Source: Propionivibrio sp.
GTDB taxonomy: Bacteria > Pseudomonadota > Gammaproteobacteria > Burkholderiales > Rhodocyclaceae
Reading direction: 5' to 3'
Assembly: GCA_016705685.1 (NCBI GenBank)
Contig: JADJLB010000002.1
Location: 62,001-126,000, forward strand
DNA length: 64,000 nucleotides
The position numbers were made by a program, and so were the translations under genes. Positions within the stretch are counted from its first letter, which is position 1. Every line of letters starts with the position of its first letter. Below are positions 15,426-29,069 of this stretch, in pieces. Under the pieces are notes generated by a model. It was not told the DNA's origin and did no database searches. It was given only the letters and a program-made list of their open reading frames with translations.

Positions 15426-15830
15426 ATGTTGCCCAAAATGTTGGCCATGCTGCCTGCTTTTCTTGCCTATTTCGCCGTAGCCATTGCCCTGATCGCCGTA
15501 TTTTTTCTGGTCTATGTCAATGTCACGCCGTATGACGAAATCGCGCTGATCCGGCAAGGCAACACGGCGGCGGCTGTGGGGCTTTCCGGCGCCCTTTTCG
15601 GCTTCGCCATTCCCGTGGCCAATGTCATCGCCCACAGCGACACGCTGGCCGACCTCGCGGCCTGGGGCGCCATTGCCGGCGTGATCCAGATATTGGCTTA
15701 TCTGGTGGCGCGCTTTACGCTGCCGCATCTGAACGAGGACATTCCCGCCGGCAAAGTGGCACCGGCGATCTTCCTGGCCGCGCTTTCATTGACCGTCGGG
15801 CTGACCAACGCCGCCTGCATGACTTACTGA
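15426..15830 (+). CDS. DUF350 family inner-membrane protein
   Basis: A 134-aa protein with four hydrophobic segments (about 10-30, 50-70, 75-95 and 110-130), matching the DUF350/UPF0719 family (YjfL-like), whose function is unknown. A polar stretch (YVNVTPYDEIALIRQGNTAAA) follows the first helix; the Asn/Asp/Glu pattern there is a family hallmark. It opens a plus-strand run with an SPFH protein, a zinc-ribbon/DUF4178 protein, a small peptide and a membrane aminopropyltransferase. The ribosome site is GGAGG (taatggaggtttccg). Related proteins often sit with polyamine or envelope-stress genes. Confidence 0.85.
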   Translation: MLPKMLAMLPAFLAYFAVAIALIAVFFLVYVNVTPYDEIALIRQGNTAAAVGLSGALFGFAIPVANVIAHSDTLADLAAWGAIAGVIQILAYLVARFTLPHLNEDIPAGKVAPAIFLAALSLTVGLTNAACMTY

Positions 15831-15859
15831 CCCTTCAACCTTCCTTTTCGGAGATTGTC

Positions 15860-16909
15860 ATGGCACTCATGGATTTCATCAAGAAGCAGTTTATCGACGT
15901 CATCCACTGGACGGAGGAGGGTGACGGCATTCTGGCCTACCGCTACCCCATGCAGGACTTCGAAATCCAGAATGGCGCCCAGCTTACGGTGCGTGATTCG
16001 CAAATGGCGGTGTTCGTCAATGAAGGGCAGGTTGCCGACGTTTTTGGCCCGGGCCTGTACAAGCTGACGACGCAGACGCTGCCGGTGCTGACCAATCTGA
16101 AAAACTGGGACAAGCTGTTCGCTTCGCCATTCAAGTCCGATATCTATTTCTTCTCGACGCGCCTGCAACTCGACCGCAAGTGGGGAACGCCCAACCCGAT
16201 CACCATCCGCGACAAGGATTTCGGCATGGTGCGCATGCGGGCCTTCGGCATCTATTCGTACAAGCTCGCCGATCCGGGCAAACTCTACAAGGAAGTTTCC
16301 GGAACTCGCGAGCAGTACAGCGTCGACGATCTGGACGGTCAGTTGCGCAATCTGGTGATCGGCACCATGACCGATCTGTTCGGCGAGTCGGGTGTCCCTT
16401 TCATCGACATGGCGGCCAACCAGGTCGAATTCAGCGCCACGCTGAAAGCCAAGCTGGAGCCGGTCTTCGACCGCTATGGCCTGGCGCTCGACAGCTTTGT
16501 CGTGCAGAACGTCTCGCTGCCGGAAGAATTGCAGAAGATTCTCGACACCAAGATCAGCATGAACATGATCGGCGACATGGGGCGTTTTACCCAGTATCAG
16601 GTGGCCAACAGCATTCCGCTGGCGGCTCAGAACGAAGGCGGAATGGCCGGCATGGGCGCCGGTCTCGGTGCCGGCCTGAGTATCGGGCAGGGCATGGCAC
16701 AGGCCATGACGCAAGCCATGCAGCCTGGAGCCGCACAACCGGTAGCCACCACCCCATCCACCGCACAGGCCGCATCAGTCGGTGCTGTAGTCAGTGCCGA
16801 CGAGGTGGTCGCCACACTGGAGAAACTGCATGGGCTGGTTGCCAAGGGCATACTCTCGCAAGCCGAATTCGACACCAAGAAAGCCGAGTTGCTCGGCAAG
16901 CTGGGTTGA
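15860..16909 (+). CDS. SPFH-domain protein with C-terminal SHOCT-like helix (YdjI-like)
   Basis: A 349-aa member of the SPFH/Band 7 superfamily, of the branch often labelled virion core protein. The N-terminal about 60 residues lead into the SPFH domain (about 25-240), with a helical end (EFSATLKAKLEPVFDRYGL). A Gly/Ala/Met-rich flexible stretch (about 255-300) and a SHOCT-like terminal helix (LVAKGILSQAEFDTKKAELL) follow. No transmembrane helix is obvious, so it probably associates with the membrane through partners. The gene is 29 bases after the DUF350 gene and very likely in the same operon. Confidence 0.87.
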   Translation: MALMDFIKKQFIDVIHWTEEGDGILAYRYPMQDFEIQNGAQLTVRDSQMAVFVNEGQVADVFGPGLYKLTTQTLPVLTNLKNWDKLFASPFKSDIYFFSTRLQLDRKWGTPNPITIRDKDFGMVRMRAFGIYSYKLADPGKLYKEVSGTREQYSVDDLDGQLRNLVIGTMTDLFGESGVPFIDMAANQVEFSATLKAKLEPVFDRYGLALDSFVVQNVSLPEELQKILDTKISMNMIGDMGRFTQYQVANSIPLAAQNEGGMAGMGAGLGAGLSIGQGMAQAMTQAMQPGAAQPVATTPSTAQAASVGAVVSADEVVATLEKLHGLVAKGILSQAEFDTKKAELLGKLG

Positions 16910-16931
16910 TCTTGCACGTGAACCGCTTATG

Positions 16932-17027
16932 ACGCGGAGTTCACAGAGAAGCAGAGATCACCGAGGAACATGAGAGTTATTCATGTCTGATGTCTCCGTG
17001 TTCTCCATGTCTCTGTGGCCTCTGTGT
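16932..17027. repeat. Imperfect inverted repeat built on CACAGAG / CTCTGTG
   Basis: The left arm (16932-16967) contains CGGAGTTCACAGAGA and CAGAGATCACCGAGG. The right arm (about 16992-17027) is its imperfect complement (CTCCGTG, GTCTCTGTGGCC, TCTGTGT). The roughly 24-base centre is AT-rich. It fills most of the 168-base gap between the SPFH and DUF4178 genes. It could be a REP/MITE-like element or a large mRNA hairpin tuning expression within the operon. Confidence 0.6.
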
Positions 17028-17077
17028 TGAAAGCGTTCAAAAACCATGAATCTCCACTCTGAGCTTTCCGGTTCAAC

Positions 17078-19009
17078 GTGAAAACCGCCAGTTGCCCTTC
17101 CTGTGGCGCGCCGGTCAGCTTCCAGTCGGCGGCCTCGGTCTATGCGGTGTGCGCGTTCTGTCGCAGCACCCTGTTACGCGACGGCGAGGATCTGAAGAAT
17201 CTGGGCCGCATGGCCGAGCTGATGGACGACCCGACGCTGATCCAGATCGGCAGCGAAGGAACATTCCGCGGCAAGCACTTCGGCGTCATCGGACGCATCC
17301 AGCTCAAGCACGCGTCCGGCCTGTGGAACGAGTGGCACATCCTCTTCGACGATGCGCGCAGCGCGTGGCTCTCCGAGGCCGGCGGGGAATTTGTGCTCAG
17401 TTCGCAAACGCCGGTCGATGAAACACTGCCGGCCTTCGATGCGCTGCAGCCGGAAATGCCGGTCAGCATCGGCGGACGCAGTTTCACCGTCACCGATCTC
17501 GAAACGGCGCGCTGCATCGCCGGGCAGGGCGAACTGCCGTTCAAGGTCGAAGCGGGCTACGACGTCAACACCGCCGACTTGCGCGGCAACGACCGCTTTG
17601 TCACCATCGACTACAGCGAGGCGCCGCCGCTGGTTTTTGTCGGTTACCCGGCGACGTTCGACGAACTCAAGCTGGTCAATCTCAAGGACACCGCTACGGC
17701 GGGGGCTGCGCAGGCCGCCACGGTCAAGGCCAGGGCATTCAACTGCCCGCATTGCGCCGCACCACTGACGGTGCACTCCGGCGCCATCGAAAGCATCGCT
17801 TGCGAGAGTTGCGGATCGATCATCGGCATCGATAACGAGAACGTGCAGTTGCTGTCGCGCGCCGCGCAGTCGATGCGTTTCCAACCCTGGTTGCCGCTGG
17901 GTAGCAAAGGCAAGCTGCAGGGCATCGACTGGGAGGCTATCGGCTTCCTGCGGCGCAGCACGCGCTCCGACGGCATAGACTACACCTGGTCTGAATACCT
18001 GCTGTTCAACGCCGAACAGGGTTTCGCCTGGCTGACCGAATACCAGGGGCACTGGAACTTTGCGCGCACCTTGTCCAACCCACCGATGGTTGGACGCGGC
18101 CAGGCCTCATTCTTGTTCAAGGGTTCGGATTTCAAACTGTTCAGTTCCGGCAAGGCGGAAGTGACCTACGTGGTCGGCGAATTCCACTGGCGCGTCGCCG
18201 TCGGCGAATCCTGTCTCGTCGAAGACTACGTCAGCCCACCGTTGATGCTCTCGCGCGAAGTGAGCGACAAGGAGGTTAGTTGGTCGCAGGGCGAGTATCT
18301 GGAGCCGGAGGCCCTGTGCGCGGCGTTCAAGATCACCAAGTCGCCGTTGGCCCGCACCGGTGTCTATGCCAATCAGCCCAACCCGCTGGCCGAACGCCAT
18401 CGCGGCGTATGTCGGTTGTTCTGGAAGCTGGCGCTGGCGGCGACGCTGGTGCAACTGGCGTTCGTATTCATCTTCGCCTCGCGTCTCGTGCTCAAGCAGT
18501 CGCTGGTCCTCTCGCCGTACGATGCTGAAGCGACGCTGACCACCCAGGAGTTCGCCCTGAAAAGTCGGGCGCGTGCGCTGCGCGTACGGCACAACACCGA
18601 CATCGACAACAACTGGGTGGACATCACTTCGACGCTGGTCGAGAAGCAAACCGGCGAGGCGTATCAAGGCGCGCAGGAAGTCAGCTACTATCGTGGCGTC
18701 GATAGCGGCGAAAGCTGGTCCGAGGGCAACAAGGACGATGACATCGTCTTCAAAGATATTCCGCCGGGAACCTATTACCTGACCATCGAGTATGAACTCG
18801 GCAAGGACAGGCGCAACGCGGTGTCCGATACCGTCGAAGTGGTGCGCAATCCGGTGGTCTGGTCGAACTATGTGCTGGCGATGATTTTCCTGGCGTTGTT
18901 CCCGCTCTTCTCGCGCTGGCGGCGCAATGCGTTCGAGTCGCAGCGCTGGAGCGAGAGCGACTTCGGTAACGAAGGCGGGAGCGCGGGCGGCGATTCGGAC
19001 GACGATTAG
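17078..19009 (+). CDS. Double zinc-ribbon, DUF4178 membrane protein
   Basis: A 643-aa protein with an internal duplication. Each half has a CxxC...CxxC zinc ribbon (C6/C9/C25/C28 and C223/C226/C242/C245) followed by a DUF4178 beta domain (about 55-195 and 270-415). A transmembrane helix (about 449-468), an extracytoplasmic beta-rich region and a second helix (about 603-620) follow. The tail is rich in Ser, Gly and Asp, ending in three aspartates. The start is a GTG beginning KTASCPSCG. Its function is unknown. DUF4178 proteins recur beside SPFH, DUF350 and polyamine genes, which suggests a sensor or adaptor at the membrane. Confidence 0.83.
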   Translation: MKTASCPSCGAPVSFQSAASVYAVCAFCRSTLLRDGEDLKNLGRMAELMDDPTLIQIGSEGTFRGKHFGVIGRIQLKHASGLWNEWHILFDDARSAWLSEAGGEFVLSSQTPVDETLPAFDALQPEMPVSIGGRSFTVTDLETARCIAGQGELPFKVEAGYDVNTADLRGNDRFVTIDYSEAPPLVFVGYPATFDELKLVNLKDTATAGAAQAATVKARAFNCPHCAAPLTVHSGAIESIACESCGSIIGIDNENVQLLSRAAQSMRFQPWLPLGSKGKLQGIDWEAIGFLRRSTRSDGIDYTWSEYLLFNAEQGFAWLTEYQGHWNFARTLSNPPMVGRGQASFLFKGSDFKLFSSGKAEVTYVVGEFHWRVAVGESCLVEDYVSPPLMLSREVSDKEVSWSQGEYLEPEALCAAFKITKSPLARTGVYANQPNPLAERHRGVCRLFWKLALAATLVQLAFVFIFASRLVLKQSLVLSPYDAEATLTTQEFALKSRARALRVRHNTDIDNNWVDITSTLVEKQTGEAYQGAQEVSYYRGVDSGESWSEGNKDDDIVFKDIPPGTYYLTIEYELGKDRRNAVSDTVEVVRNPVVWSNYVLAMIFLALFPLFSRWRRNAFESQRWSESDFGNEGGSAGGDSDDD

Positions 19010-19017
19010 GACGACTG

Positions 19018-19164
19018 ATGATCAAGACCAATTTCGTTATCGGGCTGCTGGCGCTGGCGTTCTTCGCCAACGCACAGTTTCAGGGATGGAGTCTCTTCGA
19101 TCGTTTTGCCAGCACCCAGACCTCGCGCCTGTCGGGCAGCGGGAGCAGGCTGTATCACAAGTAA
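19018..19164 (+). CDS. Small 48-aa membrane or secreted peptide in the polyamine operon
   Basis: The ATG at 19018 opens a 48-residue frame starting MIKTNFVIGLLALAFFANAQ. It has an N-terminal hydrophobic segment of about 15 residues and a polar, Ser- and Arg-rich end (RLSGSGSRLYHK). It starts 9 bases after the DUF4178 stop, and its TAA overlaps the next ATG as TAATG. This tight coupling on both sides supports a real gene. The hydrophobic part could be a signal peptide (ANA-Q cleavage) or a membrane anchor. No family is recognised. Confidence 0.7.
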   Translation: MIKTNFVIGLLALAFFANAQFQGWSLFDRFASTQTSRLSGSGSRLYHK

Positions 19165-20663
19165 TGAATCAAGCCCTGCTGTTCTCGGTTTTCATCGTCG
19201 CGTCCTGTGGTCTGGCTTACGAGCTGATCGCCGGCGCGCTGTCGAGCTATCTGCTCGGCGACTCGGTGACGCAATTCTCGACGGTGATCGGGACCTATCT
19301 GTTCGCGATGGGGATCGGGTCGTGGTTGTCGCGCTTTGTCGAGCGCAACCTGATCGCGCGCTTCGTTCAGGTCGAGCTGATGGTCGGCGTGCTCGGCGGA
19401 TTTTCCGCGGCCGCGCTGTTCTTCATCTTCGTCTGGTTCACCACGCCCTTTCTCCTGGCGCTTTACCTCGCGGTGTTCGGCATCGGCGTGCTGGTCGGGC
19501 TGGAAATCCCGCTGATCATGCGCATCCTCAGGCGCGAGCTGAGTTTCAAGGATCTCGTCTCGCAGGTGCTCACCTTCGACTACCTCGGCGCGCTGGTCGT
19601 CTCGATCCTCTTCCCGCTGCTGCTGGTGCCGCATCTCGGACTGGTGCGCAGCGGGCTGCTGTTCGGCCTGCTCAACGTGCTCGTGGCGCTATGGGCGCTG
19701 TGGCTGTTCCGCGACCAACTGCGCAACGCCGTCTGGCTGAAAACCCAGGCGTTTGTTTCGCTGGCTCTGCTGAGTGTCAGCTTTGCCCTGGCCGGGCAAT
19801 TTACCTCGCTGGCCGAGGCCCATCTCTATGCCGATGAGATTGTGCACAGCGAGACCTCGCCGTATCAGCGCATCGTCATTACCCGCTGGAAAGACGATCT
19901 GCGCCTGTACCTGAACAACAACCTGCAATTCAGTTCACGCGACGAATACCGCTACCACGAGGCACTGGTCCATCCGGGGCTGGCGACGCTGCCCGGCGCA
20001 CGGCGAGTGCTGGTGCTCGGCGGCGGCGACGGGCTGGCCGTGCGCGAGATTCTCAAATACCCGCAGATCGAGAAAGTCACGCTGGTCGATCTCGACCCGG
20101 CAATGACGAAGTTGTTCTCGACGGCAGCGGCGTTGCGCAAACTCAACGAAGGCGCACTGAGTTCGCCCAAGGTCAAAGTAATCAACGCCGACGCGCTGAA
20201 ATGGCTTGAAGAAAACGACGATCAGTTCGATTTCGTCGTCGTCGATTTTCCCGACCCGTCGAATTTCGCCATCGGCAAGCTCTACACCTCGGCGTTCTTC
20301 CGCCTGCTGGAAAAGCACCTGTCGGCGGGCGCGCTGGCCGTCATTCAATCGACATCGCCGCTCTATGCCCGGCAATCGTTCTGGTGCGTCGTCACGACAC
20401 TGGAAAGCGTCGGCCTCAATGTCACGCCGTACCACGCGCTGGTGCCGTCCTTCGGCGAATGGGGTTTCGTTCTTGCCGGTCGTCGCGCTTACACGCCACC
20501 CGCGGCTTACTCCGTCACCACGCACTTTCTGACGCCCGAGATCACGCCAGGGCTGTTCCAGTTTCCTCGGGACATGGCGCGCGTCGACGCCGAAGTGAAC
20601 CGGCTCAACAATCAGGTACTGGTGCGCTACTTCGAAAGCGAGTGGCGGCAGGTGATCCGGTGA
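19164..20663 (+). CDS. Membrane-bound spermidine synthase-like aminopropyltransferase
   Basis: A 499-aa two-part protein. About residues 1-215 hold some seven transmembrane helices with a conserved-looking start (SCGLAYELIAGALSSYLLGDS). About residues 225-499 form a SpeE-like Rossmann domain, with VLVLGGGDGLAVREILKY for nucleoside binding, LVDLDPAMT, and DFPDPSN at the active site. It should transfer aminopropyl from decarboxylated AdoMet to an amine at the membrane; the acceptor is unknown. The ATG overlaps the small upstream gene. The AdoMet decarboxylase that would supply its substrate is at 28692, beyond inserted material. Confidence 0.88.
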   Translation: MNQALLFSVFIVASCGLAYELIAGALSSYLLGDSVTQFSTVIGTYLFAMGIGSWLSRFVERNLIARFVQVELMVGVLGGFSAAALFFIFVWFTTPFLLALYLAVFGIGVLVGLEIPLIMRILRRELSFKDLVSQVLTFDYLGALVVSILFPLLLVPHLGLVRSGLLFGLLNVLVALWALWLFRDQLRNAVWLKTQAFVSLALLSVSFALAGQFTSLAEAHLYADEIVHSETSPYQRIVITRWKDDLRLYLNNNLQFSSRDEYRYHEALVHPGLATLPGARRVLVLGGGDGLAVREILKYPQIEKVTLVDLDPAMTKLFSTAAALRKLNEGALSSPKVKVINADALKWLEENDDQFDFVVVDFPDPSNFAIGKLYTSAFFRLLEKHLSAGALAVIQSTSPLYARQSFWCVVTTLESVGLNVTPYHALVPSFGEWGFVLAGRRAYTPPAAYSVTTHFLTPEITPGLFQFPRDMARVDAEVNRLNNQVLVRYFESEWRQVIR

Positions 20664-21577
20664 AGATTCGAGAAGGACAATGTCTCAGTTCGGCCAGCAG
20701 TCCTTTGCCAGCATCTTCACACAGAAGCGGTCGGGTCGAGATCCTGCGTCAAGGCGGCATCTGCCTGTTCGGTGAGCAGCGCACTTGAGCGATGGGGGCG
20801 ACCAGTATCCTGAGGCGCGGGCGGGTGAAGGGGGAAGTTTCCGAGTGGTCGCTGGTGATGGGCACAGGATAAAGGCGACGACAACCAGCGGTGGCGCGGG
20901 GAAAACAACTCGACCTTAAATTGGGGGCGCCCGCGGCGCGGGCGGGGGGGGTAAGAGCAAAATAGGGTTCCGAGTAAATGAATCGCAGATCTATAACAAG
21001 TCGCCTGAACTGCAAGAAAGATTGCTTCATTCATACATGGACTTGAACAACAGTTCTCGCATTAAAGTACCGGGGGGCTTCCAGAACCTTGAATAAGCAC
21101 TTCTGCCTGTCATCTGCGGTTCGATCAAAGAGTGTACGTCCAGGGTGAAGTCGTTGTACACCCGGACCCAGACGATGACCCGATTCAGGTTCGCGCAAAA
21201 CGACTCGGGTTGGGAGCTTCTCGGAAGATGATCGTCGATGAGGAACCTTCGGAGGGCCACTGACGAAGGAATCACAGGTCGGCTAGCCCGCTGGCGTCCA
21301 AGCAAATTGAATCATCCTCGCTGTCGATGGCGTTGTGTAATTAGGCGGGGGGTGCGGCCATCCACATAATGCGGGATACATGAACGTCTGCTTTTCATTA
21401 CTTGCAACTTCGGCTTAGGGCACAACAGCGACGGCCCGTTTGATTCGCAAAGAGAAAGTCTTCGATGGAAATCGCTGCCTGGGCCTGTTCTTTAGTTAAA
21501 GAAAACGTCTTTCCCTTAACCTGGACGGTTTGTAAGTTAACCATGAGGATCGAAATGCCATACTGGCCACGGCAAGG
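20664..21577. other. Gene-poor scar between aminopropyltransferase and PIN toxin
   Basis: About 900 bases with no convincing full gene. Two tiny frames are noted. One is 20680-20775 (plus, 31 aa, starting MSQFGQQSFASIFTQKRSGR, with an AAGGA site 2 bases before the start, too close to be ideal). The other is 21398-21544 (minus, 48 aa, starting MVNLQTVQVKGKTFSLTKEQ). A long G run occurs near 20941, and a CCACATAATGCGGG stretch near 21362 resembles ends left by tyrosine recombinases or transposons. Minus frames at 20749-21030 and 21027-21305 have no recognisable domain. The simplest reading is decayed mobile DNA. Confidence 0.5.
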
Positions 21578-22000
21578 CTACAGCGCCCAAGGATTCAAGA
21601 CTTGCGGGTAGCGCTCGAAATCCTGCACGTTGCGGGTGACCACGGTGAGGCCGTGGCACTGGGCAGTCGCCATGATCAGGCCGTCCATGACCGGCAGCGC
21701 CTGCCTCGCCAGTTCGGCGCTTGCGGCCAACTGCGCCCACACATGCAGGGCGGCGGTATCGAGCGGCAGGATGCGCCCGGCAAATCGTTGCTCGACCTTG
21801 CCCAGCCAGGCGGTGAGTTTCTGGCTGCGGCGCGGTTCGCTGGCGCTCAGTTTGAGGATGCCTTTCTCGATCTCGCCCAGGCTGATGACGCTGATGAACA
21901 AACTGGCTTCGTCCTGCTCATCAAGCCAGGCGATCACGTTTGGCGCAGGAGTTTTTTTGGCGTATTCGGAAAGGGCGCAGGTGTCAAGCAGCCAGCTCAT
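21578..22000 (-). CDS. PIN-domain toxin (VapC/FitB-like)
   Basis: A 140-aa PIN-fold ribonuclease toxin. The acidic active-site residues are visible: Asp in LLDTCALSEY near the N-terminus, Glu in SLGEIEKGI, and Asp in the PVMDGLIMATA segment, with the final Asp near TRNVQDFERY. The length and the final motif fit the FitB-like branch. Its ATG overlaps the antitoxin stop by four bases (21997-22000). Catalytic residues look intact, so the toxin is probably functional. Confidence 0.9.
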   Translation of the reverse strand: MSWLLDTCALSEYAKKTPAPNVIAWLDEQDEASLFISVISLGEIEKGILKLSASEPRRSQKLTAWLGKVEQRFAGRILPLDTAALHVWAQLAASAELARQALPVMDGLIMATAQCHGLTVVTRNVQDFERYPQVLNPWAL

Positions 22001-22248
22001 AGCTCGATGCCACGTCCGCTATCGCGGTTGCGGGAAATATCCAGGTCTTCCGCGGCAAGGTCGGGGCGCAGCAGCGCACTGGAGAGCTTGCCGCGGCGGC
22101 GCGTGAGTCGAGCATATTCTTCCGCCGAGACAACCACTGCTGTCGGCTTGCCATGGACGGTGACCGTTTGCGCGTCGCCACTCGCGGCCCGTTTTATGAG
22201 GGCGCTGAAATTACTCTTCGCTTGTTGCAGTTGCCATTCGCCATGCAT
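21997..22248 (-). CDS. Phd/YefM-family antitoxin
   Basis: An 83-aa antitoxin from the ATG at 22248, which has a GGAG ribosome site seven bases upstream; a TTG at 22260 would add four residues. The N-terminal domain (WQLQQAKSNFSALIKRAASG and VTVHGKPTAVVVSAEEYARL) is typical of Phd/YefM DNA-binding antitoxins. The short C-terminus (ISRNRDSGRGIEL) would wrap the toxin. A perfect dyad lies 15 bases upstream of the start and is a likely autoregulation operator. The 5' half of this gene recurs as a broken copy at 26733-26842. Confidence 0.88.
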   Translation of the reverse strand: MHGEWQLQQAKSNFSALIKRAASGDAQTVTVHGKPTAVVVSAEEYARLTRRRGKLSSALLRPDLAAEDLDISRNRDSGRGIEL

Positions 22249-22419
22249 GGTATGCTCCAACGATTCTGGTCAGAATGGTCTGAATTTAACATGGCGATCT
22301 CCGATTCGCCAAGTTCGAGCGCGTTGCATCCATCATTTCGAGCGAGAGCGGAAATTTCGAAGGGGTTTGACGCGATGACCGCTGAAGTTTTTGGCGGCTG
22401 TTGACCGATGCGTCGGCGG
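22131..22419 (+). repeat. Direct repeat copy 1 (antitoxin 5' end to flavoprotein start)
   Basis: This segment is about 80% identical by eye to 26725-27012, in the same orientation, and about 85% over the antitoxin-coding part. It spans the first half of the antitoxin gene, its operator, a TGGCGA-N8-TCGCCA dyad (22292-22311) and the stretch CTGAAGTTTTTG...GTTGACCGATGCGTCG. In copy 2 that stretch ends exactly at the ATG of the flavin oxidoreductase gene. The four-gene radical SAM operon lies exactly between the two copies. Confidence 0.85.
22263..22276. promoter_or_regulatory. Candidate antitoxin operator
   Basis: ATTCTG-GT-CAGAAT is a perfect dyad 15 bases upstream of the antitoxin start. Phd-type antitoxins bind such palindromes to repress their own operon. 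The matching position in the second repeat copy (26858-26869) is also a perfect dyad, with paired changes. Confidence 0.6.
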
Positions 22420-22439
22420 TTCGATGAACGAACCGGGCA

Positions 22440-23282
22440 TCAAACGGTGACGATGCGGCGGTTTTGCGGTACCGAACATGGGCAGACGGCATAGGGGCAA
22501 ATGATGGGCGCCGCCAGCAGGCGCAGGCTGCCGTCGAAGATATTGCCGAGGCGCCCATTTCCGAACCGCTTGCCGGGATAGCAGGTGTGGGCATCGCCTT
22601 TCGGCGTGATGATGAAATAACGGCTGCCGGCATGACAGGGGCGTCCGGTCAGCGAAATGCCGCGGTTCATTTCACCGGGCCGGGCCAGGTCGCCGAAATG
22701 CCGGGCCAGGCGCCAGCGATCGACCCATCCGTAGCGGGCGGGTTGGCCATCGATGCGCATCAGTTGCGGATAGAACTTGAGCCCGGCCGCTTCGAATCGC
22801 CGGCGGGATGCGGCCGCTTCGCCAACCCGCCCGGGCCGCACGACCGAGTTGACGACGAAGCTGGTGCGCGGCAGATCGCGCAAGCGATCGTGCACCGCGC
22901 GGGCCCTTTCGAGAAAGACCGGCTCGGCGATTTCCTCCAGATGCAGCGAACACGAAAACGTGCGCAGCGCATCGCCGGCAGCCAGGATGAACCGCTCGAT
23001 GACGGCCAGCGGCGTCGACAGGTTGGTCAGCACCGAAACGGTATGGCCCGCCGCGGTCAGGCGTGCCGCTACGTCCGGCAGGCGCTTGAGCAGGAAGGGC
23101 TCGCCACCGGACAGCTTGACCTCCCATGTCCCCGGCAAGGCAGCGAGGCAGGCGAGCCCGGCATCCAATTGTTTGTCGGAGGGACCGCCCACGCCATCGG
23201 CATGTTTCTGCACGCAATACGAACAGCGGTAGTTGCAGCCGCCGACGATGTTCCAGTTGATGACCTGACGTTCGGTGGCCAT
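22440..23282 (-). CDS. Radical SAM protein with SPASM-like Cys-rich C-terminus
   Basis: A 280-aa radical SAM enzyme. The cluster motif is CNYRCSYC (Cys16, Cys20, Cys23), followed by KLSGGEPFL for AdoMet binding. Further cysteines occur near GRPCHAGS, AHTCYPGKR and ICPYAVCPC, an arrangement resembling SPASM/twitch auxiliary-cluster domains. It is the last gene of a four-gene minus-strand operon, one base after the stop of the second radical SAM gene. The substrate is unknown. SPASM enzymes often act on peptides, but no precursor-peptide gene is seen here. Confidence 0.85.
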   Translation of the reverse strand: MATERQVINWNIVGGCNYRCSYCVQKHADGVGGPSDKQLDAGLACLAALPGTWEVKLSGGEPFLLKRLPDVAARLTAAGHTVSVLTNLSTPLAVIERFILAAGDALRTFSCSLHLEEIAEPVFLERARAVHDRLRDLPRTSFVVNSVVRPGRVGEAAASRRRFEAAGLKFYPQLMRIDGQPARYGWVDRWRLARHFGDLARPGEMNRGISLTGRPCHAGSRYFIITPKGDAHTCYPGKRFGNGRLGNIFDGSLRLLAAPIICPYAVCPCSVPQNRRIVTV

Positions 23283-23283
23283 G

Positions 23284-24336
23284 TCAGCAATCCGCCGCCC
23301 GGGATTGCGCGTCGAGCGCCGTCAGCGCTTGCGCCGCCGCAAAATTCATGTCGTGCTTGCCGCATCGGGCGCAGCCGGGAAAGCTCCGTCCGGCGCGCAG
23401 GCGCTCGCGCAGGGCGCGGTACGGCGGCGATTGCCAGATCGTGGCGAAATCGCTTTCGTCGATATGGCCAGCTTCGATATGTTCGCAACAAAAGAACACA
23501 CGGCCGTCGACGAAGACGCGGCTGTAGAGGTAGCCGGCAAAGCACGGAATGGCCTTGCCCGGCCCGGCCCCCGCAAGCTGGCTGGCAAAGGCATCGAGGT
23601 TATGGCGCACCGCGAGTTCGCCGGCGCGCTTCATTGCCTCGGGAATGCCCTCGGTGAGCAGGGCAGCGCGGCTTGCGGCGTCGAGCGCATAGCTTTCGGT
23701 TCCTGGCGGCTGATCGCCCAGCTTGAAAGAGCAGCGAGCTCCGTGGGCGGCAGCCAACTCGACCATGGCGACGAGTTCGCCGGCATTGACGGCATTGATC
23801 ACCAGCACGAAATTGACCGCCGTGATGCCACGCAGGCGGTTGACTCCGGCGAGCAGGCGGGCAAAGGTCGCCGGCGGCTGATTGGGATGGTAGGCCACGT
23901 AGGTGTCGGCACTGGCGGCAGCGAGATTCAGCAGAATCTGGTCCGGCGCGAGCACGGCAAGGCGGTCGAAATCGATCAGTGTGCCGTTACTGATCAGCGT
24001 CAGGTGCAGACCGCGCGCCTTGACGTGGCCGATGAAATCCCAAATCGCCGGATGCGTGAAAGGCTCGCCGCCACCACTGAGGATGATGCGCTCGGTGCCC
24101 GTCGCTGCAACCTCGTCGACGATGCGGACAAAACGCAGCGGGTCGAGGCGCTGGCGTTTCCATTCGGCGGATTTGGGCGTCGCAAGCGTCGGCGCGTAAT
24201 TCCAGCACGTAATGCAGTCCAGGTTGCAGACGTTGGTGATGTCGATATGCACCGCTTCCGGCCCGAGCCGCGGATTGCCTTCTCGCCAGCCCTGCAAACG
24301 CTCGCGCAGGGATGCACTCGCCGGTGCCCGAGCCAT
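23284..24336 (-). CDS. Radical SAM/SPASM protein
   Basis: From the ATG at 24336 the protein has 350 aa. The frame runs open to 24492, but that would overlap the glycosyltransferase. The cluster motif is CNLDCITC (Cys37, Cys41, Cys44), and ILSGGGEPFTHP is the AdoMet GGE motif. The C-terminal region has cysteines in AIPCFAGY, FFCCEHIE and GCARCGKHD, a good match to SPASM auxiliary-cluster ligation. The start overlaps the glycosyltransferase stop as TAATG, so the two are translationally coupled. A two-enzyme relay with the downstream radical SAM protein is plausible, but the substrate is unknown. Confidence 0.87.
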   Translation of the reverse strand: MARAPASASLRERLQGWREGNPRLGPEAVHIDITNVCNLDCITCWNYAPTLATPKSAEWKRQRLDPLRFVRIVDEVAATGTERIILSGGGEPFTHPAIWDFIGHVKARGLHLTLISNGTLIDFDRLAVLAPDQILLNLAAASADTYVAYHPNQPPATFARLLAGVNRLRGITAVNFVLVINAVNAGELVAMVELAAAHGARCSFKLGDQPPGTESYALDAASRAALLTEGIPEAMKRAGELAVRHNLDAFASQLAGAGPGKAIPCFAGYLYSRVFVDGRVFFCCEHIEAGHIDESDFATIWQSPPYRALRERLRAGRSFPGCARCGKHDMNFAAAQALTALDAQSRAADC

Positions 24337-25421
24337 TACGCCAGCATATCGACGATGGCGCGCGCGGCGGCACCGGCACCATTGCGGCTGACGCATCGCG
24401 CCGCGTTGGCCGCCAGCATGCGTCGGGTATCGGTATCGGCGAGGCGGTCGAGCGCCTTGCCCAGACTCGCTTCGGTCAGTGGCGTGCAACACAGGCAGGC
24501 CCCCGCGTCGGCGAGTTCGCGTGCCCGCCGCTCCTGGTCGTCGAGAACGCGTCCAAACGGTACGAGGACAGTGGGAATTCCGGCAAACATCAGCTCATGG
24601 ACGCTGTTGTAGCCGGCCGCACTGACCGCACCATCGAAAGCAGGCATGACATCGAGCATCGGATAACGGCCGTCGATGACGTGGGTGCCGGCAATGGCGT
24701 CAAGGCTCCGGGTCAGCGGACCGGCGCCGATGGCCAGCTCAAATTCCGGACGCTTGCGTACGGCGCGAACGGTCAGGTCGAGCGCGCGCTCGGCGTCGGG
24801 GTCGCCGCCGCCACCGAAGCTGGCGTAAAGCAGCCGGGCGTCCGCAGGCAGGCCCAAGACGCGGCGTGCCGCGTCGCGGGCGAGCAACTCCTCCCGTTCG
24901 CGGATCAGGATTGGTCCGACCGCACGGGCCTTGTCCGGCTCGGGCAAACTGCCGACCCGAGCGACATCGTCGTGCGGAATCAGCAGCAGGTCGTACAGCG
25001 GCAATGCCGCCTGCATCAGATCACCGAGAAAGCTGTCCAGACGCTGCTCGCGGAAGACGAACACATTCTTCTGCCGCCAGCGCAACACCGGCAGCAGCTC
25101 GTCGACCGTGCCGGCGGGATAGGTATCGGCTACCAGCACATCCGGGTCAAAAGCGCCGATCGCGTTCCACGTGACCGTCTGCACCAGCTTGAGCCAGGCG
25201 CGCTTGCCGAGGCCGGTCGCCTCGCGGACCGTCTTGGACGGCAATTTGATCGCGGCAAAGCCTTCACGGTAAATGACGTTGTCGGCTTCTGATGATGTCA
25301 GAAAGAGCACTTCGGCGGTCGGCTCGAGCCGACGCACCTGGCGCGCAATGGCGATAAGGCGCGTGACGTGGCCCAGCCCGAGCCCGTTGACGGCGTAGAA
25401 GAGGAGGCGCGGCCCGGCCAC
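24336..25421 (-). CDS. MurG-like (GT28/GT-B) glycosyltransferase
   Basis: A 361-aa GT-B fold glycosyltransferase. The N-terminal loop GLGLGHVTR parallels the GGTGGHV loop of MurG. The C-terminal donor-binding half has SFGGGGDPD and AAGYNSVHELMFAGIPTVLVP followed by DDQ, the usual nucleotide-sugar signature of family 28-like enzymes. No membrane helix is seen, so it should be cytosolic or peripheral. It is coupled by one-base overlaps to the TPR gene upstream and the radical SAM gene downstream. True MurG is excluded by the lack of a dcw setting and by divergence. The acceptor is unknown. Confidence 0.85.
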   Translation of the reverse strand: MAGPRLLFYAVNGLGLGHVTRLIAIARQVRRLEPTAEVLFLTSSEADNVIYREGFAAIKLPSKTVREATGLGKRAWLKLVQTVTWNAIGAFDPDVLVADTYPAGTVDELLPVLRWRQKNVFVFREQRLDSFLGDLMQAALPLYDLLLIPHDDVARVGSLPEPDKARAVGPILIREREELLARDAARRVLGLPADARLLYASFGGGGDPDAERALDLTVRAVRKRPEFELAIGAGPLTRSLDAIAGTHVIDGRYPMLDVMPAFDGAVSAAGYNSVHELMFAGIPTVLVPFGRVLDDQERRARELADAGACLCCTPLTEASLGKALDRLADTDTRRMLAANAARCVSRNGAGAAARAIVDMLA

Positions 25422-26659
25422 TACGAATGATCCCGGAAAATCGAATCAGAACGTTCGTTACGGGCGTGGCGGGCGGCGGCACTGGCAGCCTGCTGTGCCA
25501 ACCCGGTTTCGCGCGCCGCATCGAGATCGAGCAGGCTGACGACCGCCGCCGTGCCTGCCGCCGCCAGCGCACCGCCCGCGGCGAGACGGGCAATCGGCGC
25601 AATGCCCTGGGCCGGACGGAAGTCCCAGGATGGCACTTGTCGCGTGCTCGGGCGATGCCGCTCGGCATAAGGATCGAAATTGCCGTCCTCGCTCCAGTGC
25701 TGGAACCCCGCGCCCTCGCCACGGCCACGCAGCTCGGGCGCGATGCCGCGCGCAGCCTGCTCGGCACAGGGCGGGCAGGCAAGCACCTCGCTGGTACGGC
25801 CGCCGACGGTCAGCGGCAGACGCCGTCGAAACTCGGCATTTGCCAGCGGCCGGGCGCAGAACCAGCAACCGACGCGCTCGCCCTGCCCTTCGAGGGCGTG
25901 CGGACCAAACCCCGCGAGCGCACGCTGGCGGGCGCCCGCAGCCAGTGCTTCGGCCTCGTCGAGGCGTGCCGCCAGGCGGCTTGCCGACATGCCGTCAGCG
26001 CCGGGCACAGCGAGCGAACGCGCAACGGCGAGTTCCAAGTCGGTGGCACATTCGAGTTCGCGCCGCAAGTCGGCATCTTCGCCAAAACGCATCGCATGCT
26101 CGATCGGCACCAGACGCTCGCGCAAGGCGTCGAGCCGCGCGGAAAAGGCGCGCAGCAGTTGCGGGTCGATCTTCAGAGCCGCCTTGGACGCGTGCGCCGC
26201 GACCCGCTGCCGCCTGCGCCGCCGAACGATCAGCACGCCCGCAATGATCGCCAATACGATGCCGCCAAAAGCATAGAAGAACACGCGGGCATCGTCGTGC
26301 CCGGAACGCCCGCGCTCGCTGCCGGCGTCATCTTCCATGTGCGCGAGCTTCTGAGCGATTTCAGCCTTCTTGTATTCCGGATCGAGTGCGGCAACCCGCC
26401 GGAACGCCGCCTCGGCCCCGGCGTATTGGCCCAGTTGCCGTCGCGCCAGTCCCAAATTGTAATGCCAGCGCGGATTCTCGGGTTCCAGCTTCGAGACTTC
26501 GCTGAACCGTCGCGAGGCCGTCGTGTAATCGCCGGCGTCGTAGGCGCGTTTGCCGTCTTCATAGATGGAAAGTGCCTGCGGCGAGGGCTCGGCTGCACCC
26601 ACCGGCGAAACGGCCCAGATCAACAGGCAGGCACAGGCAAGCAGGACTCGTCTAATCAT
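25421..26659 (-). CDS. TPR membrane protein with cytoplasmic zinc ribbon
   Basis: A 412-aa protein that starts the radical SAM operon. Signal peptide at about 1-22 (ending VGAAE); TPR repeats at about 28-108 (YEDGKRAYDAGDYTTASRRF and YNLGLARRQLGQYAGAEAAF); a transmembrane helix at about 126-145 followed by an Arg cluster; then a cytosolic region. That region has a CxxC pair (C265/C268) and a second pair (C295/C298), probably a zinc ribbon. A hydrophobic Ala/Gly stretch (about 354-377) may be a second membrane segment. It would place TPRs outside and the zinc ribbon inside, suggesting a scaffold for the other three products. The function is unknown. Confidence 0.8.
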   Translation of the reverse strand: MIRRVLLACACLLIWAVSPVGAAEPSPQALSIYEDGKRAYDAGDYTTASRRFSEVSKLEPENPRWHYNLGLARRQLGQYAGAEAAFRRVAALDPEYKKAEIAQKLAHMEDDAGSERGRSGHDDARVFFYAFGGIVLAIIAGVLIVRRRRRQRVAAHASKAALKIDPQLLRAFSARLDALRERLVPIEHAMRFGEDADLRRELECATDLELAVARSLAVPGADGMSASRLAARLDEAEALAAGARQRALAGFGPHALEGQGERVGCWFCARPLANAEFRRRLPLTVGGRTSEVLACPPCAEQAARGIAPELRGRGEGAGFQHWSEDGNFDPYAERHRPSTRQVPSWDFRPAQGIAPIARLAAGGALAAAGTAAVVSLLDLDAARETGLAQQAASAAARHARNERSDSIFRDHS

Positions 26660-26732
26660 GATGATGAAAGGATAGGAATTTCAATGGTGTTTTCCGAGAG
26701 TATCCGGGGGTATTGAATCTCGGTCAATCACC

Positions 26733-26842
26733 GCGGTCGGCTCGCCACGGACGGTGACCGATTGCGCGTCGCCGCTCGCACCCCGTTATACGAGGGTGCT
26801 GAAACTACCGTTCGCTTGTTGCACTTGCCGTTCACCATGCAT
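26733..26842 (-). pseudogene. Antitoxin remnant (Phd/YefM 5' half, internal stop)
   Basis: Read on the minus strand from 26842 it gives MHGERQVQQANGSFSTLV, then a stop, then RGASGDAQSVTVRG. This parallels MHGEWQLQQAKSNFSALIKR...VTVHG of the intact antitoxin. A Lys AAA codon has become TAA, and the copy ends before the C-terminal half. No toxin follows. It is a dead duplicate of, or an independent relative of, the antitoxin at 21997-22248. Confidence 0.85.
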
Positions 26843-26857
26843 GATATGGTCCGAAAG

Positions 26858-26869
26858 TTCCGGCCGGAA
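26858..26869. promoter_or_regulatory. Palindrome in repeat copy 2
   Basis: TTCCGGCCGGAA is a perfect 12-bp dyad at the position of the antitoxin operator in copy 1. Several bases differ between the copies, but the symmetry is kept. Confidence 0.45.
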
Positions 26870-27001
26870 TCGTCATGATCCTGAATGGCGATTTCCGAGT
26901 CGCCAAGTTCGCTCGAACTGCATCTATCATGTCGGGCAAGAGAGGGAATCCGGAAGGGATTTGAAGCGATGACGGCTGAAGTTTTTGACCCATGTTGACC
27001 G

Positions 27002-28680
27002 ATGCGTCGCCGTGACTTTCTCGCCTCGCTGGCGGCTGCGGGTCTGGCTTCCGGGGTGGCCAATCTGGGCGGCTGCAGCGGATCGGCGAAACCGCCCAGG
27101 CCACCGCTACCGCCGGGGGAACTGCTCGGCGCGTCGCTGGAACTCGGGCATCGGCTGCGCGAGCCGAAGCTTCCGCCGCCGGCCGAGACAAGGCGCGTTC
27201 AGGTCGCCATTGTCGGCGCCGGGATCGGCGGTTTGTCGGCCGGCTGGAAGCTGGCCAAAGCGGGTTTCAAGGATTTTCTCTTGGTCGAGCTGGAGGGCGA
27301 AGCCGGAGGAAATTCGCGCGCCGGTCACAACGCAGTTAGCGCCTACCCACTCGCTGCGCATTACCTGCCGTTACCGACGCGGGAAGCGACCGCCGTGCGG
27401 GAACTCTTGCTGAACTCGGCGTTCTGTACGGCGACCCGCGCGCCGCCCGGCCGCGTTATGACGAACGCTATCTTTGCGCGACACCGCAGGAACGGCTGTA
27501 TCGCAACGGCTGGTGGCAGGATGGCGTCCTGCCGCAGCTCGGCGTCAGCGCTGCGGAGCAGGATCAGTACCGGCGCTTTTTCGCCCTGATGGACGGCTTC
27601 AAGCAACGGCACGATGGTGGCGCTACGCCGCGCCGCGCTTTTGCCCTGCCCATGGCGCTCTCCAGCCCGGCGCCCGACCTGTTGGCGCTCGACAGGATCA
27701 GCATGCGCGACTGGCTACTGGAGCAGGGGCTCGATTCGCCGCAACTGCACTGGTACGTCGACTACGTCTGTCGTGACGATTACGGCACGAGCCTGGACGA
27801 GGTCTCGGCCTGGGCCGGCATCCACTACTTTGCCTGCCGCAACGGCGAAGCGCAGGACGCCGCGAGCGATACCGTGCTCACCACGCCGGGCGGCAACAAT
27901 TGGCTGGCGGGAGGACTGGCGCAGAGCATCCGCGACCATGCCGGCGATCGGCTGCTGACCGGCGCGCTGGTTTTCCGCGTCGCCGACGAGTCTGGGAAAA
28001 AGCGCGGGCGAATGCAGGTCGATTTGTGGCTACCGGCGGAACAACGCACGCTGCGGCTGGAAGCCGAGCAATTGATTTGGGCGGCGCCGCTGTTTCTCGT
28101 TTCCCATGTCTTTGTCGGAAACGACGCGTTGAAGGCGGCCGCCCGGCGCTTTACCCACGCACCCTGGCTGGTTGCCAACCTGACACTTTCGCGTTTCCCC
28201 GAGCAACGCGCCGGGGTGCCGATAGCTTGGGACAATGTGCTCCACGATAGCCCCGGCCTGGGCTACGTGGTGGCCACACACCAGCAGATGCGCATGCGGC
28301 CGGGCGCCACCGTATTCACCTATTACCGGGCATTGAACCGCATGACGCCGCAGGAAGGCCGCACGGCTCTGCTGGAGACTTCGCGCGAAGCCTGGGCCGA
28401 GCAGATTCTGGACGAACTGGAGCGGCCGCACCCCGAGATCCGGCAGCTGACGACGCGTCTCGATGTGTTCCGCAACGGTCACGCCATGGTGCGGCCGCTA
28501 CCGGGGCTGATCTGGGGAAAGGAACGCCAGCTTTTTGCCGCCGACGGTGCGCGCCTGCGCTTTGCCCATGCCGACGTGAGCGGATTCTCGCTGTTCGAGG
28601 AAGCGCAGTATCGTGGCGTACTGGCCGCAGAGCGCACGCTGCACCGCCTGGGCAAGAATTTCCAGACTTCGTTAAGCTGA
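27002..28680 (+). pseudogene. TAT-exported FAD-dependent amine-oxidase-like protein, frameshifted
   Basis: Two frames form one protein of about 560 aa. The first part starts MRRRDFLASLAAAG, a twin-arginine signal with a lipobox-like LGGC, followed by the FAD-binding AIVGAGIGGLSAGWKLAKAGF and the GGNSRAGHN loop. Homology leaves this frame after VRELLL at about 27411 and resumes in frame +1 as ELGVLYGDPRAARPRY. It then continues to the end with TTPGGNNWLAGGL and a C-terminal FAD-contacting region (HADVSGFSLFEEAQYRG). One missing base at about 27411 explains it. It is 11 bases before speH, so a polyamine or related amine substrate is likely. It may be an assembly error rather than a dead gene. 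Confidence 0.8.
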
Positions 28681-28691
28681 GCACACCTGAT

Positions 28692-29069
28692 ATGAACGGA
28701 CTGCACCTCATCGCCGAACTCCACGACTGCAAATGCGCGCCGCACCTGTTGCGCAGCGTCGACGCCCTGCGCGAACTTTGCCTAGCGATCTGTTCGGCGC
28801 CGGGCCTGACGCCCGTCGGGCAGGTCTTTCATCAGTTCGGCAGCAACACGGAACCGGCCGGCGCGACTGGCGCTGTAATTCTTGCCGAGTCCCATCTCGC
28901 CGTGCATACCTGGCCCGAAATGAACGCCGTTACGCTCGATCTCTATGTCTGCAATTTCAGTCAGGACAACAGCATTGCCGCGCGTTCGGCCTGTGCGCGG
29001 CTGGTCGCCGCTTTCGTTCCGGGCCGTGTTGAGCAGCGGGAGATCGTGCGTGGGTCCTGCTCGAATTAG
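28692..29069 (+). CDS. speH: S-adenosylmethionine decarboxylase proenzyme (class I, SpeH-like)
   Basis: Pyruvoyl enzyme that makes decarboxylated AdoMet, the aminopropyl donor for spermidine-type synthesis. It has 125 aa, the usual length of the bacterial class IB form. The self-cleavage site is AESHLAVHTWPE: Glu66-Ser67 is cut and Ser67 becomes the pyruvoyl group. His72 and Cys87 (LYVCNF) fit the conserved processing and proton-donor residues. It follows the flavin oxidoreductase by 11 bases. The matching aminopropyltransferase is 8 kb upstream, so the pathway genes appear split by an insertion. Confidence 0.93.
   Translation: MNGLHLIAELHDCKCAPHLLRSVDALRELCLAICSAPGLTPVGQVFHQFGSNTEPAGATGAVILAESHLAVHTWPEMNAVTLDLYVCNFSQDNSIAARSACARLVAAFVPGRVEQREIVRGSCSN

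What the first reader, a model, noticed from the sequence alone, without database searches (positions are those of the whole stretch)
15426..29069. Membrane-linked polyamine operon split by an insertion
DUF350, SPFH, double zinc-ribbon/DUF4178, a 48-aa peptide and a membrane-spanning aminopropyltransferase lie at 15.4-20.7 kb. The enzyme that makes the aminopropyl donor (SpeH) and a TAT-exported flavin oxidoreductase lie at 27-29 kb on the same strand. The content suggests one pathway that makes or modifies a polyamine (or attaches aminopropyl to something) at a specialised membrane patch, with an amine-oxidising step outside. Known family facts: SpeE-like enzymes need decarboxylated AdoMet, and SpeH makes it. 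The rest is inference.
Basis: partly seen in the sequence, partly recalled or inferred. Interest (0 to 1): 0.75.

Follow-up and report, generated by a model that had tools for sequence, protein, structure and literature searches.

The report
Membrane polyamine operon with lysine-tipped peptide
A bacterial gene set that probably attaches a polyamine fragment to something at the cell membrane was cut in two by inserted DNA, and its relatives nearly always carry a small membrane-anchored tail ending in the amino acid lysine, which may be what gets modified.

Summary
DUF350, SPFH-SHOCT, DUF4178, a 48-aa peptide and a seven-transmembrane aminopropyltransferase (7TM-SpeE) are separated from a TAT flavoprotein (frameshifted) and SpeH by a 6.3 kb insert. 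Relatives show the unsplit operon: 11 of 120 loci have all seven genes in order, and in 131 family genomes 7TM-SpeE and the flavoprotein co-occur 43 of 43.

The operon type is partly in print (Ravi 2024). What I did not find described is the peptide's end. All 98 DUF4178-bearing loci (of 121) carry an anchored tail whose last residue is lysine, separate or fused to DUF4178. In a phylum-wide sample, 29 of 31 genomes with 7TM-SpeE have such a tail. Charge bias puts the catalytic domain outside. In operons that use a peptide-spermidine ligase instead, the partner tails (DUF1190) mostly end Gly-Gly: 30 of the 30 best hits, but 50 of 62 overall, the rest ending in S or T.

Best reading: 7TM-SpeE aminopropylates the C-terminal lysine of the tail with SpeH-made donor. 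No chemistry was shown. Plain spermidine synthesis and a Braun-lipoprotein-like wall anchor are live rivals.

The parts
15426..15830 (+). DUF350 (YjfL-type) membrane protein
   Evidence: PF03994 1.9e-37
15860..16909 (+). SPFH/Band_7_1 protein with C-terminal SHOCT
   Evidence: PF13421 2.1e-79, PF09851 1.9e-7
17078..19009 (+). DUF4178 protein (two DUF4178 stretches, CxxC pairs, two hydrophobic segments near the C-terminus)
   Evidence: PF13785 8.1e-33; CxxC and hydrophobic segments read from sequence
19018..19164 (+). 48-aa membrane-anchored peptide ending ...YHK; its stop codon overlaps the SpeE start by one base
   Evidence: homologues: last residue K in 85 of 85 non-redundant tails
19164..20663 (+). 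Seven-transmembrane aminopropyltransferase (7TM-SpeE, PRK03612 type)
   Evidence: NF002956 694 bits; GGGDG and both acids of DFPDP invariant in 43 sequences; charge bias predicts N-in/C-out
20664..27001 (.). Insertion: about 0.9 kb without an obvious gene, then Phd/VapC pair, two radical SAM-SPASM proteins, a glycosyltransferase, a TPR protein (all minus strand)
   Evidence: none of the six proteins in the stretches of 120 relative loci
22131..22418 (.). Copy 1 of a 288-base direct repeat covering the Phd 5' region
26725..27012 (.). Copy 2 of the repeat (about 80% identical), ending 11 bases into the flavoprotein
27002..28680 (+). TAT-signal FAD oxidoreductase, frame broken near 27.41 kb
28692..29069 (+). 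SpeH, AdoMet decarboxylase, LAESH and HTWPE motifs kept

Best explanation
A membrane polyamine-tagging operon. SpeH makes decarboxylated AdoMet. 7TM-SpeE, with its catalytic domain on the periplasmic side, transfers the aminopropyl group to the C-terminal lysine of the membrane-anchored tail encoded near it (48-aa peptide here; fused to DUF4178 or lipoprotein elsewhere), giving a spermidine-like tip (lysine C4 amine plus C3 amine). The periplasmic flavoprotein, where present, then oxidises or removes that group. DUF350, SPFH-SHOCT and DUF4178 scaffold the system across the membrane. Shown by computation: gene content, linkage, co-distribution, conserved catalytic motifs, invariant C-terminal lysine, charge-based topology. 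Inferred: the acceptor, the product, how the donor reaches the outer face (perhaps through the 7TM domain, which has 19 invariant polar residues), the scaffold roles and the flavoprotein's role. In this strain the flavoprotein step may be lost.
For: Last residue K in 85 of 85 non-redundant tails, while no position beyond -2 exceeds 52%; all 98 DUF4178-bearing loci of 121 have such a tail, 84 separate and 14 fused to DUF4178. The family was first clustered without any requirement on its end: 67 of 67 ended in K. Where SpeE lies apart from DUF4178 the peptide still follows DUF4178, 8 of 8 genomes fetched. Phylum-wide, 29 of 31 genomes with 7TM-SpeE have a K-ended anchored tail in the fetched stretch: the window genome, 10 of 10 others of its order, 18 of 20 others. 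L153, L203, L154 and L225 tails are lipoproteins by sequence, hence extracytoplasmic. Other operon proteins: 0 of 41 DUF350, 0 of 86 SPFH, 0 of 117 SpeE end in K. Topology: K+R 397 in loops 2/4/6 against 63 in loops 1/3/5, 43 of 43 sequences agree. Donor-binding GGGDG invariant. Parallel: in DUF1190/peptide-spermidine-ligase operons 50 of 62 tails end GG; YjfC and YgiC are annotated peptide--spermidine ligases.
Against: No chemistry was tested. AdoMet decarboxylase is cytoplasmic and no exporter of its product is known to me. Part of the phylum-wide search looked for K-ended ORFs on purpose, so chance hits are possible; the same kind of scan found one in 6 of 20 soluble-SpeE control loci, five of them MnmE (CIGK), which also shows that an invariant terminal lysine need not be modified. 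Some tails end VK or IK (for example L169, L213), so the penultimate residue is not fixed. 2 of 31 genomes lacked a detected tail, and 1 of 6 in a second sample (L206). Many tails are basic, which the positive-inside rule alone would place inside. No flavoprotein lies beside SpeE in L152-L154, L169, L170 and others. The Gly-Gly parallel is not a rule: 12 of 62 DUF1190 tails end GS, SS, GT or AT, and that ligase is a soluble ATP enzyme that would have to act before export.
Confidence: 0.45

Rival explanations
1. 7TM-SpeE is a membrane-bound spermidine (or aminopropyl-diamine) synthase making free polyamine, perhaps released to the periplasm; the lysine-tipped tail is a regulatory or scaffold subunit whose tip sits in the acceptor pocket as a polyamine mimic.
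For: Above the NCBIfam cut-off for polyamine aminopropyltransferase; only aminopropyltransferase and only AdoMet decarboxylase in this genome; 38 of 43 family genomes with 7TM-SpeE lack a soluble SpeE match. Lampropedia cohaerens, of a family with related operons, has spermidine among its major polyamines (PMC5015223, passage; operon not checked there).
Against: Does not explain why the lysine must be the very last residue across peptide, fused and lipoprotein forms. 56 of 131 family genomes have neither enzyme match, so the step is dispensable there. One Massilia strain, of a genus with the operon, had 0.3 umol/g spermidine against 4.8 putrescine (PMC9028926, passages; its genome was not checked).
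Confidence: 0.27
2. The tail is a peptidoglycan anchor like Braun's lipoprotein, whose C-terminal lysine is cross-linked to the cell wall by L,D-transpeptidases (recalled); aminopropylation acts on another target or blocks that link.
For: Membrane anchor plus flexible tail plus terminal lysine is the Braun-lipoprotein plan (recalled); some tails are lipoproteins by sequence.
Against: The tail tracks 7TM-SpeE (29 of 31 genomes); linkage to L,D-transpeptidases was not tested either way.
Confidence: 0.14
3. 7TM-SpeE aminopropylates a lipid or another envelope amine; the tail and SPFH only localise it (close to the suggestion of Ravi et al. 2024 that polyamine level or aminopropylation of other substrates alters the membrane).
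For: Membrane-embedded enzyme; SPFH and DUF350 partners; PspA variants in print (PMC11237479, section 19 and a passage of section 20).
Against: Gives no reason for the invariant terminal lysine.
Confidence: 0.12

Closest known systems
PSP-linked operons with 7TM spermidine-synthase-like protein (Ravi et al. 2024, PMC11237479; section 19 read whole, other passages)
   Same: 7TM-SpeE, DUF350, DUF4178; band-7/SHOCT, AdoMet decarboxylase and polyamine oxidase in their other variants
   Different: No PspA or CesT/Tir gene among the genes scanned here; a terminal lysine is not mentioned ('lysine' 0 times in the main text). Their supplementary tables were not seen
E. coli yjfIJKLMC and ygiBC (DUF1190 plus peptide--spermidine ligase)
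   Same: DUF350 (yjf only), membrane-anchored Gly/Ser-rich tail, enzyme of polyamine attachment next to it
   Different: Tail ends GG in E. coli (GS, SS, GT or AT in 12 of 62 places); enzyme is an ATP-grasp ligase, not an aminopropyltransferase
Fungal NHMT, a 7TM protein with a spermidine-synthase-like domain that methylates the N-terminal histidine of secreted LPMOs (PMC10349129, passages)
   Same: N-terminal 7TM plus C-terminal SpeE-like domain; acts on a protein terminus in the secretory route
   Different: NHMT lost the acid of GxG(D/E)G; here GGGDG is invariant. A sequence relation of the 7TM parts was not tested
Soluble aminopropyltransferases of known structure (7xif, 1uir/3anx, thermospermine synthase 6bq2)
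   Same: Catalytic domain matches within residues 223-474, best E 5.1e-33
   Different: Soluble, no 7TM part; an invariant FGEWG stretch here differs from the soluble enzymes; that it is on the acceptor side is recalled

Membership tests
PRK03612 polyamine aminopropyltransferase (NF002956) | score above curated cut-off over full length | tested here: met
   694.1 against 472 bits, residues 4-502
PRK03612 polyamine aminopropyltransferase (NF002956) | acid in GxG(D/E)G that binds the aminopropyl donor (role as given in PMC10349129) | tested here: met
   G286-G290 with D289 invariant in 43 sequences
PRK03612 polyamine aminopropyltransferase (NF002956) | aminopropyl transfer to a diamine | not testable with these tools
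   needs an assay
Soluble spermidine synthase SpeE (TIGR00417) | score above curated cut-off | tested here: not met
   133.3 against 249.55 bits
AdoMet decarboxylase SpeH (TIGR03330) | cut-off and conserved LAESH with the catalytic serine | tested here: met
   79.9 against 75.65 bits; ESH and HT.PE conserved in 67 sequences
PSP operon group 2 of Ravi et al. 2024 | 7TM-SpeE with DUF350 and DUF4178 | tested here: met
PSP operon group 2 of Ravi et al. 2024 | CesT/Tir-PspA pair in the operon | tested here: not met
   no PspA among the 18 proteins scanned in 13.8-30.3 kb; the rest of the genome was not searched for PspA
Polyamine oxidase (flavin amine oxidase) | Amino_oxidase family score above cut-off | tested here: inconclusive
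   13.7 against 19.8 bits on the N-terminal piece; intact relative best PDB hit N1-acetylpolyamine oxidase 3.6e-4, residues 61-143 only
Fungal NHMT | loss of the acid in GxG(D/E)G | tested here: not met
   acid kept
Braun-lipoprotein-like wall anchor | C-terminal lysine on a membrane-anchored envelope protein | tested here: met
Braun-lipoprotein-like wall anchor | covalent link to peptidoglycan by an L,D-transpeptidase | not tested

The most novel reading that the evidence does not exclude
Bacteria put polyamine tips on membrane-anchored tails by two unrelated chemistries: aminopropylation of a C-terminal lysine by a periplasm-facing 7TM aminopropyltransferase fed with decarboxylated AdoMet carried across the membrane, and amide ligation of spermidine to a C-terminal carboxyl (mostly Gly-Gly, else a small residue) by YjfC/YgiC-type ligases. 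This would be a new class of protein C-terminal modification.
Probability: 0.33. Interest if true: 0.92.

Novelty: new variant of a known kind. Interest (0 to 1): 0.7.

Why it matters
The 7TM aminopropyltransferases are annotated as polyamine enzymes, but I found no report of their true acceptor in the searches made. An invariant C-terminal lysine on the neighbouring anchored tail names a concrete candidate acceptor that one mass-spectrometry experiment can check. If true, it links polyamines to the cell envelope by a covalent mark, and it suggests the YgiB and YjfM tails as candidate substrates for the E. coli peptide-spermidine ligases YgiC and YjfC.

Tried and rejected
Anomalous SpeH acting as ornithine or arginine decarboxylase (PMC10407285, passages): set aside, because that paper ties such enzymes to genomes without SpeE or with two SpeD copies; here one SpeH and one SpeE occur. 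Specificity was not computed.

Insertion as part of the pathway: rejected, its proteins occur in no relative stretch examined.

The upstream-ORF scan was too coarse as a test: 1.5 kb upstream on one strand only, it found a K-ended TM-like ORF in 68 of 113 test loci and 6 of 20 soluble-SpeE control loci. Five of the six control hits are MnmE (named by recall from the CIGK end). I rely. My first adjacency count for the flavoprotein (5 of 116) used the wrong start of the matched part and was redone. DUF4178 without 7TM-SpeE, the discriminating control, was nearly unavailable: 21 of 21 genomes above cut-off are in the 7TM-SpeE list; G269, below cut-off, showed no tail beside a PspA-type operon; G047 has DUF4178 without SpeE in its assembly and no tail was found there.

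The first 30 DUF1190 loci were the 30 best-scoring of 67 places and 21 of them came from two families; the other 37 places include 20 ending GG, 12 ending GS, SS, GT or AT, and five weak or partial matches ending otherwise. I lowered two odds (0.48 to 0.45; 0.38 to 0.33).
Full report
What is there. On the plus strand of the window lie DUF350, SPFH-SHOCT, DUF4178, a 48-aa ORF and a 7TM aminopropyltransferase (15426-20663), then 6.3 kb of other genes, then a TAT-signal flavoprotein and SpeH (27002-29069). The peptide's stop overlaps the SpeE start by one base, which suggests coupled translation. The flavoprotein frame is broken near 27.41 kb, whereas relatives have intact copies. 7TM-SpeE and SpeH are the only matches to their families in this genome. 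The two same-genus genomes in the sample, G052 and G105, show none of 7TM-SpeE, SpeH, DUF4178 or the flavoprotein, so the operon may be prone to loss in this lineage.

The insertion. In the close relative L112 the SpeE stop and flavoprotein start are 4 bases apart. Here the gap holds a Phd/VapC pair, two radical SAM-SPASM proteins, a glycosyltransferase and a TPR protein, all on the minus strand, with a 288-base direct repeat (about 80% identical) whose second copy ends at the flavoprotein start. None of these six proteins was found in the stretches held for 120 relative loci; some of those stretches end soon after SpeE. The closest named relative (L031, Candidatus Propionivibrio aalborgensis, SpeE 94% identical) has other, defence-like genes right after SpeE, so this junction seems to have been hit at least twice.

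Linkage and co-distribution. 80 named loci (the best 80 kept of 587) and 40 unnamed stretches were compared. Some genomes are present twice (for example L032/L111, L035/L117, L054/L131), so counts are not independent. The full order DUF350-SPFH-DUF4178-peptide-SpeE-flavoprotein-SpeH on one strand is found in 11 of 120 (ten genomes, since L035 and L117 are one; unlabelled genes in between were not excluded). The flavoprotein lies directly downstream of SpeE in 87 of 114 with at least 900 bases to the right. Other loci have rearranged or divergent versions. In 131 family genomes: 7TM-SpeE 43, flavoprotein 43, overlap 43; DUF4178 overlap 42 of 43; SpeH overlap 41 of 43, SpeH being also present in 25 genomes without 7TM-SpeE, nearly all with a soluble SpeE match. 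Fisher tests give 4e-14 (SpeH) to 1e-35 (flavoprotein) but ignore phylogeny. Pairwise distances of the operon proteins correlate (Spearman 0.64-0.82), which shared descent alone also gives.

The small peptide. Clustering of unannotated small ORFs with a hydrophobic segment, with no requirement on their ends, put a family from 67 loci on top, 67 of 67 ending in lysine. With HMM hits there are 88 peptides and 85 non-redundant tails: position -1 is K in 85, position -2 is H (64) or G (21), and no other position exceeds 52%. Of 121 loci (window included) 98 hold DUF4178, and all 98 have such a tail. In 14 of them (Variovorax, Ramlibacter and the like) it is fused to the C-terminus of DUF4178 after a hydrophobic segment; four of these were also caught as peptides by the ORF scan, hence 84 separate. 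The script's own 'fused' count of 16 includes two DUF4178 proteins (L094, L143) that end in K without such a tail and have a separate peptide. In eight genomes where SpeE lies elsewhere (G018, G025, G079, G125, G062, G112, G087, G011) the peptide still follows DUF4178 and ends HK.

Wider sample. In 398 genomes of the phylum 31 have 7TM-SpeE at E up to 1e-60. All 31 were examined: the window genome, ten others of its order and twenty others. A hydrophobically or lipid-anchored K-ended tail lies in the fetched stretch in 29, mostly directly upstream of SpeE or at the end of DUF4178, in one case about 10 kb away (L308). Misses are L209 (SpeE at a contig end) and L226 (among the lowest-scoring SpeE copies). 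In some searches small ORFs were listed because they end in K, so this is a directed search; the tails found resemble each other (GRVK or GRIK, GPGSGK, RGLRGGK), which chance hits would not. In a second sample, 6 of 109 genomes of one gamma order have 7TM-SpeE: five have a tail ending SHSRGK directly upstream, and in L206 none is seen in the 1 kb held upstream. L153, L203, L154 and L225 are lipoproteins by sequence; L201, L204 and L205 have the same tail as L153 on a transmembrane anchor. Of 11 plasmid records with 7TM-SpeE four were fetched (Novosphingobium, Tritonibacter, Ensifer, Burkholderia) and all four have a K-ended peptide. Of eight K-ended tail proteins scanned against Pfam none reached a cut-off.

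Controls. Other operon proteins rarely end in K (0 of 41 DUF350, 0 of 86 SPFH, 0 of 117 SpeE, 4% flavoprotein, 2% SpeH; DUF4178 13%, nearly all of it the fused tails). Around 20 soluble SpeE genes 6 had a K-ended TM-like ORF within 1.5 kb upstream, five of them MnmE by its CIGK end. MnmE shows that an invariant terminal lysine can have other reasons.

Topology and catalysis. Over 43 sequences the loops after helices 2, 4 and 6 hold 397 K+R, those after 1, 3 and 5 hold 63 (all in the last), and every sequence agrees. With seven helices (also the count of Ravi et al.) this puts the N-terminus inside and the catalytic domain outside. GGGDG is invariant, as are both acids of DFPDP. 19 polar residues are invariant in the 7TM domain, so it is probably more than an anchor. 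Of 35 non-redundant flavoprotein N-termini 34 contain RRx[FLVM] and 22 a lipobox-like cysteine by a permissive pattern, so that enzyme is probably outside too.

A parallel system. E. coli yjfIJKLMC and ygiBC encode DUF1190 proteins next to enzymes annotated peptide--spermidine ligase. The activity paper (Pederick et al. 2023) was seen only as a citation and is not held; whether it names these tails as substrates I could not check. DUF1190 was found in 62 of 398 genomes at 67 places. The 30 best places all end Gly-Gly, 28 of 30 with a YjfC-like gene in the stretch. So 50 of 62 clear tails end GG, and 44 of 55 with a YjfC-like gene in the stretch. YjfM and YgiB of E. coli end HWGG and SMGG. A ligase acting on a carboxyl end pairs with a small C-terminal residue, an aminopropyltransferase acting on an amine pairs with lysine. 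This match favours the tail as acceptor, but the glycine side is a tendency, not a rule.

What is known. Ravi et al. 2024 (section 19 whole, passages elsewhere) describe 7TM-SpeE with DUF350, DUF4178, a lipoprotein and PspA, and band-7/SHOCT variants with AdoMet decarboxylase and polyamine oxidase. They propose polyamine monitoring or aminopropylation of other substrates. 'Lysine' occurs 0 times in that main text, DUF4178 occurs in one paper of the library, aminopropyltransferase with 'C-terminal lysine' in none. The library lacks most subscription papers and supplements were not open to me, so this is not proof of novelty. Li et al. 2019 on AdoMet decarboxylase linkages is not held.

Verdict. 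The new content is the lysine-tail rule, which makes the acceptor question directly testable, with a weaker Gly-Gly parallel.

Noticed in passing
window 20664-27001: Unique insertion with Phd/VapC, two radical SAM-SPASM proteins, glycosyltransferase and TPR protein, with a 288-base repeat inside and at its right end; no integrase among the six proteins scanned.
   Followed up: partly
L031:1608-5590: In Candidatus Propionivibrio aalborgensis three other genes (looking like an ABC-3C type defence set, name recalled, not searched) follow SpeE at the same junction, so this spot may be an insertion hotspot.
   Followed up: partly
window 27400-27420: Frameshift in the flavoprotein; real decay or sequence error.
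   Followed up: partly
window 16930-17040: The gap between SPFH and DUF4178 holds short imperfect repeats of cacagag/ctctgtg type (read by eye).
   Followed up: no
L247-L276, L317-L353: DUF1190 proteins end in Gly-Gly in 50 of 62 clear cases, the rest in GS, SS, GT or AT; 55 of the 67 places have a YjfC-like gene in the stretch.
   Followed up: yes
L152, L206, L211, L215, L218-L222, L224, L225: A DUF350 or DUF350-like protein lies near 7TM-SpeE also where SPFH and the flavoprotein are missing or unlabelled, suggesting that DUF350, tail and tip enzyme are the core.
   Followed up: partly
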